Assembly (NCBI GenBank): GCA_964017235.1
Contig: OZ024929.1
Span: forward strand, 109,105,793 to 109,169,792
Direction of reading: 5' to 3'
Length of the DNA stretch: 64,000 bases
Origin: Sabellastarte sp. h YS-2021
Lineage: Eukaryota; Annelida; Polychaeta; Sabellida; Sabellidae
The notes under the pieces are model-generated. The model made no database searches. It was not told where the DNA came from and worked only from the letters and a program-made list of their open reading frames with translations. Position 1 is the stretch's first letter. Every line of letters begins with the position of its first letter. A program made the translations under genes and the position numbers. Of the stretch, positions 31,401 to 40,400 are shown piece by piece.

Positions 31401-34400
31401 AACTAACAAAAATGCCAAAGGATATTTGAGAACTGTTTATTACATATGTTACCATTTTAGGTTTTCTAATCACAGACACTTCTTCAAAACGATTAACAAA
31501 AATACGAACAACAACAAATTCTGTGAAGTACCTCACTTATATACATTTTACTAGGTTAAAAGGTTATCAAGTTCAAAATATGGCACAAAGACCTTTTCTG
31601 CTTAAAATCATGTACAGTGATGGTTAAGTTTCATTGTATCATTGGCAGGAGTATGAGTTTGAAATACCAAATTCTACTTGGTTTCAAAGTGCTGGAAAGC
31701 GATTTTGACTGTAAACACAGGTATTACTTTACTATCACATACTCATTACTGTTTCACGGTTATTACACAAATAGAATAATTTGTTGTTAATCATTACAAA
31801 CCCTGTGCACACACCATACCACCAGGCCGCAGGGCTGACTTCATCAAGGCGTAATATTCTTTCTGGAATAATGATGCAGCTGGTCCTACAAAAATACACT
31901 GTGGTTGTACCACTCATTTCCATACTAAAATATTTTTCTATGTAATACCAACCAGGGTCACTTACATACAAAAATTAAGAATGATTGAATATAGCATCAG
32001 AAAATGGCTGCATAAAGAGCAGTGAGTCAGTATTTTACTAAGAATTGGGCAACTCCAGTGGATAGAAATTTAACTGAAGATTGAATTTGAGGTGAACTCA
32101 GTTTCTGTCAGTCAACTCCGACTTCCTCAGGTTCCCACATGCAAATCTGGTTTTAGCAGGTCAAAGGTACATTATGACATAAGTTTTATATGTGATGCTC
32201 CAACCTCATGGAATGACTGAAATATATAATAGTAAGGCTTTGTCTTTGCACTTTGGCACAGTGGTAACACAATCGCATCCCACCTACATGATCAGAGTTC
32301 AAATCCCAGCCTGACCTCATTTGGGAAAGCTGGTAGTTACTTGCTGTTGGTCAGCAGTGTACAGTATAGAACGTTTACCAACTGTATGTACTAGTTTTCT
32401 CTGCCCTTCCAACTACCTGCCATAATAAAACCGATAAGGTACTAGACGAGACGTAAAACACTAAGTATCTAAGTATATAAACTTTGCACTTTGGAATTCA
32501 GATGACTGAAACAAAGAAACTAGACTTACTGCCTCAGAGAACTAATTCATATTTTATCCACTGGAAAGATAAGCAATAATAGCTAGCATGCACTTGATCT
32601 TTCACCAATGTTGAGCAATAATACGGGAGTTAAGGACTTTTAGATTTGGTTACCTTCTATCACAGAAGGGGTCCAAGGTCAAATCAAACATCAAAAGATT
32701 GCCAGCACCTGATTTCCTGTAGGTTGGTTACATATCCCAAGCATGTAGGACCAATAATAAGCAAGGTATCAATCCCTTTAAGTCGGCTTCTTCCGTATGT
32801 CCCTAAAGCAGGGGTCCATAGTGAAATTCAACCACATCAAAAGATTGCCAGCACATGATTTCCTATAGGTTGGTCACACAACACAATCCTGTAAGCAGTT
32901 TTAAGTTTGCCTACCCTTATTTGACATTAAAGGAAAGGTCCAAAGTCAAATCTGACGACATCAAAGATTCCCAGCCTTATAGGTTTGTTTCACACCTCAA
33001 ATCTCTAGAACTACTGAGGAGGACAATATGAATGCTTGTAAATTTGGATTCTCTCATTTGACCTCCAGGGAGGGATGCAAGGTCAAATGTGACCACATTA
33101 AAAAGATTTCTGATCAATGACTTCCTGTAATTTGGTTTCACATACAAAATCTGGTAAAGTGCCATGAAAATCTAGGAGAAATAAAGAGGGAGATATAAAG
33201 CTTTGGTTACTTATTTTCCTGTTTTACATTTTATAACCTCATATGTTTTCTCAGTATGAATTGGGGGGGGGGGGGTTCCACAAGGGTTTACTGTTAACTA
33301 AAGTTTTTATTCACTGTACGTTGATCTTGTTTGCACTTTGTCTTCAAGGATTTAATATAGTCTCATCTCTATCATACCCTCTTTCACAGTTCACTGTACT
33401 ATTTTCAAAGGAATGTTTTGGTATTGTAAGGCTCCACTTGAAATCCATGATTTCCTACAGATTGTTTTATCATTCCCAAATGTCAGGACTAATAGTTTGC
33501 AAAATCGAAGGCATATTTGTGTGCATACTCCATTAACCATGAAACCAGGGGTCAAAGGTCAAATCTAACCCTTCCAGAAGATTCACAGCCCATGATTTCC
33601 TTTTGGTTGTTTTCAAGTTCTAAACCCATAGGAACAAAATAAGAAAGATATTAAGGCTTTTACTAACATAAACCCTGTTTGGCTTTGAAGTAGGGATCAA
33701 ATTTCAAATCTGACTCTTCAAAAATACTTGTGGCATATAATTTCCGACAGGTTCTTTTACCATTCCAAAACTCGAGAGCACATAATAAGCTTGCAATAAG
33801 GTATTTTTCATTAGGCAGATTCCATTTGACCTTGATGCAGGGATCAAAGATCAAATCTGACCCTTCAAGATGATTCCAAGCCAGTGATTTCCTATAATTG
33901 ACCTTAACATTCCAAGCTTTGATGACCAATAATAACGGAGTTATGAATCAAAACATCCAAAAATGTAGGAAAATAAATAAGTTATAACACGTTTTTATCA
34001 TGCAAAAACAGTTTGACCTTGAAGCAGCGATCAAAGGTCAAATGTAACACTAAGAAGAAAGAAGGGTGACTACTGAGTGCATTATAGTCAGGATAATAAC
34101 CAAGAAGAATCACACAAATTGGTTTATGCCCATGGGAGCCAGAGAGTGCAGTTTGAATATCCAGGACAACTCAATACGCCTACGCATGGAAGTATTGGAT
34201 GCTTCAAACTTTGGTGTACACCACTCTAGCACAGAGAATTGCATGTTTTTGTGATTATGTCCTTCACTTGTGAAGTGACGTGAGACAGGGGTGTCTATTT
34301 TATCTGCCTTTTGTACAGAATGTCTGTGTTCATACATTCTTTGTCTAAATGCGCGCGAGGTTTCTCCCACATAATGTTTGCTGCATTTGGAGCAGGTAAT

Positions 34401-37400: not shown

Positions 37401-40400
37401 TCTTTCTTCTTTGTCTTATATGGCCATGAAGATCACCAGAATTCACCTAAAAATAACCCAAAAAGGTTTAAAAATAATCACCATTAATATGAGTTATTTA
37501 ATAGGCATTTTATAAATATCGCATAAATGACATTTATAATCGCATTTAAGATAATTTTAAATAAAATAAGCATGTTTATATATTCCAGAGCATGAGATAT
37601 AATATTATATATCACTTAAAATAAAATAAAAACTAATAAATTATTTTTAAATAAAATAAAAATTATTTAAAAATAAAATATCACTTCAATATTATATAAA
37701 AAGTGATTTACAGCAGTGACGTAATCGTAAGAATTACGTCATCGCGTAAAAACGTCATACAATTGAATGACATCACAAAATCAGTCACTAAGTCATTTTT
37801 AGTACTGGGATGGTCAAAATCATAAAAACAAGTATGGATAAAAATAATTATAAATGTGGTCATTGCAACCAAGGTTTTAAACACAAGTCAAGTTTAAGAC
37901 GCCACATTAATACTATCCACAAACAGAAAAGGTTTATCTGTGGAATTTGCAATAAGAAATACACCAGAAATGTGGATTATATCAGCCACATAACCAAGAA
38001 TCATCCACCTCTACTAATGAAACAGGGGCCCGAGAATGTCACTTATGACAAACCAACCAGCTCTACAATGATGGAAGCCAACACCACAAACCATCAACCC
38101 CAGGCCACTACAAGTAACTATCACTCTTTAGAGGCCACTACAAATGCCATAACAGGGGTCACTGACTGGGAAACAATCTTAACAAAAGACCTTGAATTAA
38201 GCGACGACGAGTCACAACCTGCTCCACTGGGACCACCTAAAGTCTGTATAGGAGTCAATACAGAAAAAAGTTTTCCCACTGAAGAAAACAAAGGTAGCAA
38301 CACTTCACCAATAGGGCTTTACAACCTAACCCCTGTCACATCGGCCCTCTTCTCAACACACAATCTGCCAGAAGAAGCCAAGACCACTTTAAAAGTGTCA
38401 ACCAAGCCCACCACCCAGATTGGTTGTGTTCCTGTCGTTTTTCAGAAAAATAAGGCAGCTCAAACCGACATCCAGAAGTGCCAGGACTGCAGTTACAACG
38501 AACACCTCATAGTTGAGCGACAGCAATATATAATCGATGATGCTGTTCGCAATACCCAGCCAAATCATATAGAGCCAGTTACTTCCAGGGAGGACCGGCA
38601 CAACATGCCACTCCCATGCACAGCCAGGTATTGGAAGTGGTTTTCCAGACTGAGGCCTAGCCTAATACCCAGAACCCCTAAGGAGTTCCCTAAAGCTGTC
38701 AGATCACCAACTTACACAAAGAGCGAGATTAAGATCACCAGCAAACAATCTGTGATGACAAATAACAATGTGAGGAAACCAAGCACATTGATGATTGACA
38801 ATTCTACTTATGAGGCAATATGCAGCCGAAAGCCCACAAGACCAACACTAGTTACCTCACCAAGGAAACTGGTACTACCACCACCACCACAAGATGGAAG
38901 CTGGTCTTACACCACTACCAGATTTTAAAATAGTGAACACTATTTTATAGACAAAGACAATAATAACATAATTTATTATTTTATACTGATTTTATTATAC
39001 TGTACAAAAACACAACATAAATATATTCATATGTATAAAATATATTTAATTATTTGGAGTATTTTAAACCAATATTATTTATAACTAATTAACTAAACAC
39101 AAATTAGTTAATATTAAAAATAAATACACATACTAATATATTATATATAATAATTAAAGTTATTTTTATTTTTTAACATATATTAAAATAATATAACTAC
39201 CTATTATAAAAATAAAGATAATATGGTGAATAAAGCTTATTAAAATAAATATTTCTACGACACAAACTTGTCTCTGTATGACTTATATTATGAATTATAT
39301 TCACAAAAGAATATAATTACATAAGGAAGCATAATAATAAAATTTTAATGAAGCTAACAACTACTCTCATATGAATGGAACCTATAAATAGAGACTTAAC
39401 AAAAGCCTGGTAATGAGATACCCATACTCACCATCAATTACGAAATGAGGACAATATAGTTGTATTTTTATAGTACTTAAATCTGAGTGAAAAAATCAAT
39501 AATCAAAATACACGTGATAATTGAGACACATTCACTCCACACTTCAGGAATTCCCTATACAACCTGGAGCCTGCAACCAGGCTCCTGAACCGGCTCTGAA
39601 CCGGCCCTGAACCAGGCTCTGAACCGGGGGCTCCCCCTGCGGAAGCCAAAAGTACCTTAGGGACCAAGAACCTGAATATCTCATAGCCTCTGATGAGACT
39701 GAGAATAATTTTACCAGTCGAAATACAATTTACCCAGAGTAAATTATATCAGGCAGATAAACAAAGCTTATCAACCTTCAAGTCTTTGCACAAGCAGGAA
39801 GTAGATCTTTTCTCAAATGTAACACTTCTAAAAGATTCACAGCCCATGATTTCCTACAGGTTGTTTTCACATTTCAAACCCCCAGGACTAATATTAAAGA
39901 AGAAATAAGGCTTTTAGTACACAAACACAGTTTGACTTGAAGCAATGGTCAAAGATAATATCTGACTTTCCACTGGATTCCCAACTCATGATTACCTATT
40001 AAGGACTTATAAATGTAAATATCCAAAAATACAGGAGGTTGACATGCCAATGTTTGGAGGCCAGCCAATGACCTTGAACAAAGAGGATAAAGATCAAATT
40101 TCTGCATGCTTAAAGGGGGCAAAAAATATATGTGTGTGTTATATAGAATAAAAACATTTGTTCAGTGCAAAATTGATAAAAAATCCTCTAATGCGCTGGA
40201 ATCCAAAAAAGGATAGTCAAAAACCAGGCAGAGGCCATAACCCATTAAGTGCCCGCCAGGGAGGGATGACTACGGTGATGGCTAATGTAAATCCAAATAG
40301 GTATGTCTTGGAATGGCTCCTGAAACTGGAGATGGTCTGTTGGGATCTAACAATTAGTGTAAACCTGTTCCATTCAACTGGTGCAGCCGTGACCAAAAAA

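What the first reader, a model, noticed from the sequence alone, without database searches (positions are those of the whole stretch)
34052..39812. Penelope-like insertion carrying a zinc-finger frame and a hammerhead ribozyme inside one 14-bp duplication
One perfect target duplication surrounds RT, two GIY-YIG copies in inverted arrangement, an intact 372-codon C2H2 frame and a type I hammerhead. Hammerheads are known in PLE pseudo-LTRs. A downstream zinc-finger protein in the same sense as the ribozyme and the plus-strand GIY-YIG would be an unusual PLE layout. That the zinc-finger protein belongs to the element is inference.
Basis: partly seen in the sequence, partly recalled or inferred. 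Interest (0 to 1): 0.85.

Follow-up and report, generated by a model that had tools for sequence, protein, structure and literature searches.

The report
Penelope retroelement with zinc-finger-coding repeat
A jumping gene of the Penelope kind carries, inside its long repeat and just ahead of a self-cutting RNA, an extra conserved gene for a zinc-finger protein, and related copies in the same animal genome keep that gene in the same place.

Summary
Observation confirmed. Window 34052-39812 is one insertion inside a perfect 14-bp duplication, with Penelope-like (PLE) RT and GIY-YIG, an inverted GIY-YIG copy, an open C2H2 frame and a type I hammerhead core. Arrays of ~5.9-kb units read ZF ORF-hammerhead-tail-ORF1 (266 aa)-ORF2 (RT+GIY-YIG, 804 aa). 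In 14 loci, 22 of 23 ZF frames follow a GIY-YIG end and 21 of 23 precede a hammerhead core. ZF is constrained (dN/dS 0.10; 130 of 191 differences at third positions). Homologues down to 48% identity are mostly open (98 of 112 scored matches without stops), and diverged groups read keep the order. Eight of eight inverted-type insertions read at both ends have 14-15-bp duplications, one end at a fixed 'tail' before ORF1, the other, inverted, ~60 nt past ORF2: this suggests reverse transcription from two RNA sites, one per target strand. Most likely an endonuclease-bearing PLE with split ORFs and a protein-coding 2.4-kb pLTR: a new variant of a known kind. ZF function is inferred; other species and two key papers could not be checked.

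The parts
34038..34051 (.). left target-site duplication TCAAATGTAACACT
34052..34109 (-). 3' end of the minus-strand piece (58 nt past ORF2 stop), outer end of the insertion
   Evidence: similar end in other insertions
34110..34424 (-). ORF2 C-terminus, GIY-YIG, minus copy (distal part)
34425..35216 (.). secondary hAT-like insertion, 8-bp duplication GTTATTTC, ends TAGTG/CACTA (not part of the element)
35217..36688 (-). ORF2: reverse transcriptase and start of GIY-YIG; an in-frame stop lies just upstream (toward higher coordinates)
36811..36816 (.). inverted (fold-back) junction between the two cDNA pieces
36847..37353 (+). ORF2 C-terminus with open GIY-YIG, plus copy
37354..39812 (+). pseudo-LTR of about 2.4 kb, shown with the ~60-nt 3' end that follows ORF2; contains ZF ORF and hammerhead
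37717..37741 (.). palindrome TGACGTAAT..ATTACGTCA ahead of the ZF ORF (possible CRE-like promoter element; inferred, name recalled)
   Evidence: sequence; kept in the other subfamily with a changed loop
37810..38928 (+). ZF ORF, 372 codons from first ATG (364 from the ATG at 37834), two C2H2 fingers at the N-terminus
39678..39758 (+). type I hammerhead: core CTGATGA 39690-39696, stem II 39697-39719, GAAA 39720-39723, stem III 39724-39748, predicted cleavage after C39750, stem I GCCT 39686-39689 / AGGC 39751-39754
39751..39812 (+). 'tail' between predicted cleavage site and insertion end; the end lies within about 8 nt in 12 of 12 loci read there
39813..39826 (.). right target-site duplication

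Best explanation
The insertion is a defective copy of an endonuclease-bearing Penelope-like retroelement whose ~2.4-kb pseudo-LTR encodes a conserved C2H2 zinc-finger protein ahead of a hammerhead ribozyme. Full units (~5.9 kb, head to tail) read: ORF2 3' end - ZF ORF - hammerhead - tail - ORF1 - ORF2 (RT-GIY-YIG). Shown: this order, the fixed ends, the target duplications, constraint on ZF, ORF1 and RT, and the layout in diverged groups. Inferred: long array transcripts are made; the hammerhead can cut them into unit RNAs (ORF1-ORF2-ZF); the GIY-YIG enzyme nicks both target strands about 14 bp apart; RT primes on one strand at the tail just before ORF1 and on the other about 60 nt past ORF2, and the two cDNAs join at an inverted junction, as in this window. 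The ZF protein is most likely a nucleic-acid-binding accessory, acting in the RNP, at the target DNA, or on the element's own promoter.
For: Copies: 49 matches of the block in the genome (40 of 1145 candidates scored). Order: 22 of 23 ZF frames directly follow a GIY-YIG end on the same strand, 21 of 23 are followed by a hammerhead core, and 22 of 30 ORF2 ends run into a pLTR, the other 8 lying at outer ends. Arrays have ~5.9-kb period. Ends: 12 of 12 tail ends within about 8 nt. Eight of eight insertions of inverted type read at both ends have one tail end, one ORF2-end and 14-15-bp duplications; random position pairs share 6 bp on average, at most 11. Two 5'-truncated copies (C6, C3_21) run ORF2-ZF-hammerhead-tail without inversion, so ZF lies within the reverse-transcribed RNA. 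Selection: ZF dN/dS 0.098, RT 0.070, GIY-YIG 0.141, ORF1 0.083; ZF differences by codon position 33/28/130, no indels over 1092 bp. Depth: ZF homologues at 48-61% identity, 98 of 112 scored matches without stops; ZF-to-ORF1 distance near constant within groups. ORF1, ORF2 and a 61%-identical ZF follow in order on C14. Hammerhead core and ORF1 start are kept at 52% ZF identity (L041).
Against: No expression, cleavage or transposition data. The hammerhead is below Rfam thresholds in the window and not reported by Rfam at E up to 1 in other copies; folding is no better than shuffles and pair counts show no covariation beyond shuffles. Two of 23 ZF blocks lack a recognisable core, and only 19 of 24 cores have all stems in the strict scan, five C18 copies carrying a stem I change. 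61 of 102 ORF1 matches and 71 of 112 ZF matches had no scored partner at the expected distance, which score limits, truncation and array ends may explain but which I did not check one by one. Start sites of reverse transcription are read from insertion ends only. The 9-bp duplications of C6 and C3_21 are within the range of their controls. The codon test compares two subfamilies only. A 3559-bp array (C4:27.3 Mb) may lack ZF. dS differs between genes (0.28-0.84), so subfamilies may have recombined.
Confidence: 0.9

Rival explanations
1. The ZF-hammerhead block is a separate (non-autonomous, retrozyme-like) element that merely recombined with or inserted next to a PLE here.
For: A solo block with an inverted 3' end and its own 14-bp duplication exists (C5_38). 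Tandem arrays with 2632-bp ZF spacing exist.
Against: Block ends equal the pLTR ends of full elements; ZF sits at the same place in units of diverged groups. The one 2632-bp array read is a deletion derivative: the ORF1 start is fused in frame to the GIY-YIG C-terminus (L042).
Confidence: 0.04
2. The ZF ORF is a recently captured host gene riding as passive cargo.
For: PLEs can capture host genes between pLTRs (PMC3846280, passages seen). C2H2 proteins are common host genes (general knowledge).
Against: It predates the split of groups with 48-61% ZF identity and is constrained. No host paralogue was recognised among the 112 scored matches, but most of these were seen as coordinates only and 1947 candidates were not all scored.
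Confidence: 0.05
3. The fixed 'ORF2 + ~60 nt' end is the 3' end of a processed transcript rather than a second internal start site of reverse transcription (a rival to the two-site step only).
For: The end is about as sharp as the tail end; no transcript data here.
Against: No poly(A) is seen at these ends. PAc protein starts internally and primes on both strands (PMC11167929, section 'Main text' read), though with no difference in start site between strands.
Confidence: 0.4

Closest known systems
Canonical Penelope/Poseidon PLEs, e.g. PAc of Anolis (PMC11167929)
   Same: RT plus C-terminal GIY-YIG, tandem units, pLTR, hammerhead near the start of the coding region, insertion ends near the pLTR-ORF junction ('tail')
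   Different: [quoted passage not shown] Here ORF1 and RT-GIY-YIG are separate frames and the pLTR is 2.4 kb and encodes a C2H2 protein. [quoted passage not shown] here the two ends differ.
Adineta vaga Pen families (PMC3846280, passages)
   Same: pLTRs, partial tandems, inverted parts, 8-10-bp duplications, solo pLTRs
   Different: pLTRs of about 0.2 kb in the passages read, no gene in them; inverted pLTR rather than an inverted ORF2 end
Terminons / Athena PLEs (PMC6431247, passages)
   Same: PLE RT with accessory ORFs, hammerheads, tandem arrays
   Different: endonuclease-deficient RT and telomeric; their listed accessory genes do not include a C2H2 protein in the passages read
Metazoan retrozymes (PMC7229834, passages)
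   Same: type I hammerhead, tandem units; mobilisation in trans is proposed there
   Different: retrozyme RNAs are ~170-400 nt circRNAs; the 2632-bp ZF array read here is a coding deletion derivative of a PLE
Naiad and Chlamys PLEs (recalled; Craig et al. 2021 not held)
   Same: PLEs with zinc-finger motifs and hammerheads (recalled)
   Different: as recalled, the motif is inside the RT/EN protein, and in Naiads GIY-YIG is N-terminal; here GIY-YIG is C-terminal and ZF is a separate ORF

Membership tests
Penelope-like elements (EN+) | reverse transcriptase with C-terminal GIY-YIG endonuclease in one frame | tested here: met
   window RT and GIY-YIG frames above Pfam cut-offs; open 804-aa ORF2 in a relative, GIY-YIG 33 bits (cut-off 22.6), RVT_1 28.2 bits (just under its cut-off of 29.6)
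Penelope-like elements (EN+) | RT belongs to the PLE clade by phylogeny | not tested
   no tree was built; assignment rests on domain order, pLTRs, tail, hammerhead and general knowledge
Penelope-like elements (EN+) | tandem/partial tandem units with pLTRs, inverted pieces, short target duplications | tested here: met
Penelope-like elements (EN+) | single ORF | tested here: not met
   ORF1 and ORF2 are separated by ~230 nt with stops; both frames recur separately in diverged groups. Not treated as excluding, since two-ORF PLEs (without endonuclease) are known (PMC6431247, passage)
Type I hammerhead ribozyme | conserved core CUGANGA..GAAA, three stems, UH cleavage site (recalled) | tested here: met
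   85 of 95 pair cells standard over 5 aligned copies, stem II intact in 5 of 5
Type I hammerhead ribozyme | match above Rfam threshold | tested here: not met
   21.4 bits for RAGATH-1-hammerhead, cut-off 56.3
Type I hammerhead ribozyme | self-cleavage | not testable with these tools
   needs in vitro RNA
Retrozyme | short non-coding hammerhead-bounded repeat | tested here: not met
   block is 2.4 kb and coding under constraint
C2H2 zinc-finger protein | C-X2-C-X12-H-X4-H fingers | tested here: met
   PF00096 32.6 bits (cut-off 25.2), two stretches

The most novel reading that the evidence does not exclude
A PLE lineage has turned its pseudo-LTR into a gene: hammerhead-cut array RNAs are three-gene units, and the pLTR-encoded zinc-finger protein is a dedicated partner that guides the RNP or controls the element. 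It is kept even in short derivatives that have lost RT and most of the endonuclease and spread as coding, retrozyme-like tandem arrays. Each insertion is made by two reverse transcriptions that start at two different internal RNA sites, one on each target strand.
Probability: 0.3. Interest if true: 0.85.

Novelty: new variant of a known kind. Interest (0 to 1): 0.68.

Why it matters
In the papers seen, PLEs are described as compact one-ORF (with endonuclease) or two-ORF (without endonuclease) elements, apart from the endonuclease-deficient Terminons with their accessory genes. A lineage with endonuclease, split ORFs and a third, constrained gene inside the pLTR widens that picture and gives a protein to test for targeting, RNA packaging or self-regulation. 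The sharply defined pair of insertion ends makes the open question of how PLEs form inverted insertions testable: it predicts two start sites of reverse transcription. Arrays without RT that keep the ZF gene offer a natural test of whether it acts in trans.

Tried and rejected
Rejected: a separate element or chance neighbour for the ZF block; ZF frame as a chance ORF; a programmed stop in ORF2, since the stop of the C5_79 copies is absent in C18a, C11a and C11b; 3559-bp arrays as proof of ZF-less relatives: the stretch read (L043) shows a hammerhead core and the ORF1 start, but by comparison with other units 3559 bp is too short for a full ORF2 plus pLTR, so its ZF status stays open. Ends: the first guesses for C14_93 and C5_38 gave common stretches of only 6 and 8 bp; the ends were re-read and then gave 14 bp. 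C4a was first counted as one-ended; its second end and 15-bp duplication were found on re-checking. Literature: searches (40 of 4,831 listed; 20 of 30 listed) listed no paper whose title or abstract start describes a PLE with a C2H2 gene in its pLTR; two searches returned no paper; most listed papers were not opened. Cervera and De la Pena 2014 and Craig et al. 2021 are not held. Repbase was not available.
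Full report
Observation. The insertion 34052-39812 is bounded by TCAAATGTAACACT at 34038-34051 and 39813-39826; that 14-mer occurs nowhere else on the + strand of the window, and the joined flanks align across the junction to neighbouring host repeats. Inside are PLE RT and GIY-YIG on the minus strand, an inverted GIY-YIG on the plus strand, an open C2H2 frame and a type I hammerhead. The minus GIY-YIG is itself split by a 792-bp hAT-like element. A full-structure hammerhead scan finds only the one at 39690-39754 and none in 40 first-order Markov copies of the window; Rfam sees it only below threshold, and free folding is no better than shuffles.

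What it is. The window's genome is held (1.79 Gb, 647 contigs, unnamed). A search with 37416-39812 gave 49 matches, with 40 of 1145 candidates scored. I fetched 20 stretches that make 13 loci, and analysed these with the window, 14 in all. In arrays on C18, C11, C5 (79.1 Mb) and C4 the unit repeats head to tail every ~5.9 kb. Of 23 ZF frames in these loci, 22 lie directly downstream of a GIY-YIG end on the same strand; the exception is a solo block, C5_38. Conversely, 22 of 30 ORF2 ends run into a pLTR of over 1 kb; the other 8 (window, C18, C5_116, C11, C4a, C2_5, C14_93, C5_34) are outer ends of insertions. A hammerhead core with stem II follows 21 of 23 ZF frames; counting partial pLTRs there are 24 such cores, 19 of which pass the strict scan with all stems. 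The unit is: ~60 nt of ORF2 3' end, AT-rich DNA with a palindrome, ZF ORF, AT-rich DNA, hammerhead, tail, ORF1 (266 aa), a gap of ~230 nt with stops, ORF2 (RT-GIY-YIG, 804 aa). So the ZF block is the pseudo-LTR.

Ends. Twelve of 12 loci read at the tail side end within about 8 nt of each other, roughly 6-14 nt before the ORF1 start codon. Eight of eight insertions read at both ends with inverted parts (window, C18, C11, C4a, C14_93, C2_5, C5_34, C5_38) have their other end inverted and ~60 nt past ORF2 (C14_93 with a small internal deletion there). Their duplications are 14, 14, 14, 15, 14, 14, 15 and 14 bp; random position pairs in the same loci share about 6 bp on average and at most 11. The ends of C14_93 and C5_38 were re-read after a first attempt that gave 6 and 8 bp. 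Two further copies (C6, C3_21) are 5'-truncated, not inverted, run ORF2-ZF-hammerhead-tail, and have 9-bp matches, a length that the controls of these loci also reach (up to 20 and 12). The remaining four loci (C5_116, C14_35, C5_19, C5_79) were not read to both ends. This fits reverse transcription from both target strands, starting at the tail on one and past ORF2 on the other. PAc protein likewise starts internally, near the pLTR-ORF junction, and extends both strands, but without a difference between strands (PMC11167929, section 'Main text' read). The two-site model is an inference from ends.

Is the ZF gene real? Between the window copy and the other main subfamily it has 191 differences over 1092 bp without a gap, 130 at third positions, dN/dS 0.098; RT 0.070, ORF1 0.083, GIY-YIG 0.141. 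Among the first 20 loci (L001-L020) 13 have the full 364-codon frame and one more a 362-codon version. A protein search of the genome scored 112 of 1947 candidates: groups at 96-100%, 81-86%, 60-61%, 52-55% and 48-50% identity, 98 of 112 without stops (the best-scoring matches are favoured). ORF1 gave 144 scored of 1812, ORF2 56 of 9400, the ZF C-terminus 150 of 603. With the top 102 of 144 ORF1 matches, 41 of 112 ZF matches have an ORF1 within 3 kb downstream, at near-constant distances within groups (mostly 1948-1968; 1852; 1786-1821). The other 71 ZF and 61 ORF1 matches had no scored partner. Score limits, truncation and array ends can explain that, and for three such ORF1 matches the C-terminal search did find a ZF just upstream (C14:43.75, C5:97.68, C8:104.91 Mb), but I did not check them one by one. 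Of 34 ZF-ZF spacings under 7 kb, 27 are 5.68-6.22 kb. On C14 a diverged unit shows ORF1 (1870623), ORF2 (1871656-1874067) and ZF (1874560, 61%) in order. In the 52% group the one stretch read from ZF to ORF1 contains the hammerhead core and ends at the ORF1 start (L041).

Derivatives. On C11 (88.17 Mb) ZF copies repeat every 2632-2633 bp. The stretch read runs ZF end-hammerhead-tail-first ~38 codons of ORF1 fused in frame to the GIY-YIG C-terminus (L042): a deletion derivative; its ZF frames are open (376 aa), and it is presumably mobilised in trans. 2633-bp spacings also occur on C2 and C8, not read. A 3559-bp array on C4 (27.3 Mb) has a hammerhead core and ORF1 start but could not be read fully; its ZF status is open.

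Function. The protein has two N-terminal C2H2 fingers, a less constrained middle (dN/dS 0.137) and a conserved C-terminus (0.065). I commit to a nucleic-acid-binding accessory role, with RNP/targeting and promoter control as the two main options, not separable here. The ZF ORF follows a palindrome TGACGTAAT..ATTACGTCA kept in both subfamilies, which suggests, but does not show, its own promoter.

Comparison. A review states that PLEs were until recently regarded as compact, with either one ORF with RT and GIY-YIG or two ORFs without endonuclease, typically 4-6 kb, before Terminons (PMC6431247, passages). Rotifer Penelope families have ~0.2-kb pLTRs, inverted pLTRs, solo pLTRs and gene capture (PMC3846280, passages). 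Retrozymes are small circRNA-forming repeats (PMC7229834, passages). Eight literature searches (two of them with cut lists) listed no paper whose title or abstract start describes a C2H2 gene in a PLE pLTR; two key papers and Repbase could not be read, so novelty is provisional. Verdict: a real, constrained new variant of PLE.

Noticed in passing
window 34425-35216: 792-bp hAT-like insertion (8-bp duplication GTTATTTC, ends TAGTG/CACTA) inside the minus GIY-YIG of the element.
   Followed up: partly
window 29759-30172 and 42456-42962 (-): Spermine/spermidine synthase domain pieces on the minus strand on both sides of the insertion, so it probably lies in an intron of that gene.
   Followed up: partly
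window 18255-23555 (-), and 46986-54636: Retroelement with RT and RNase H and a long overlapping frame, DIRS/tyrosine-recombinase-like by recall; related-looking broken frames recur at 47-54.6 kb.
   Followed up: no
window 60177-61031 (+): Frame with helix-hairpin-helix and TatD DNase domains.
   Followed up: no
window 39627-39668; unit gap between ORF1 and ORF2: A similar stretch (GGCTCCCCC..AAAA.TACCT.A.G) lies before the hammerhead/ORF1 and again before ORF2; possibly an RNA or translation signal, but the local match is short and not significant by itself.
   Followed up: partly
L042 (G000:C11:88171740-88172850): 2632-bp tandem derivative with the ORF1 start fused in frame to the GIY-YIG C-terminus, ZF frames open.
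   Followed up: partly
G000:C5 79.14-79.18 Mb: Array in which the 7 of 7 ORF2 copies listed share one in-frame TGA, which suggests amplification after the mutation.
   Followed up: no
window copy and C4a vs C5_79b unit: Synonymous divergence between the subfamilies differs by gene (dS 0.28 GIY-YIG, 0.51 RT, 0.84 ZF on the window copy; 0.75 ORF1 on C4a), which may mean recombination between subfamilies.
   Followed up: no
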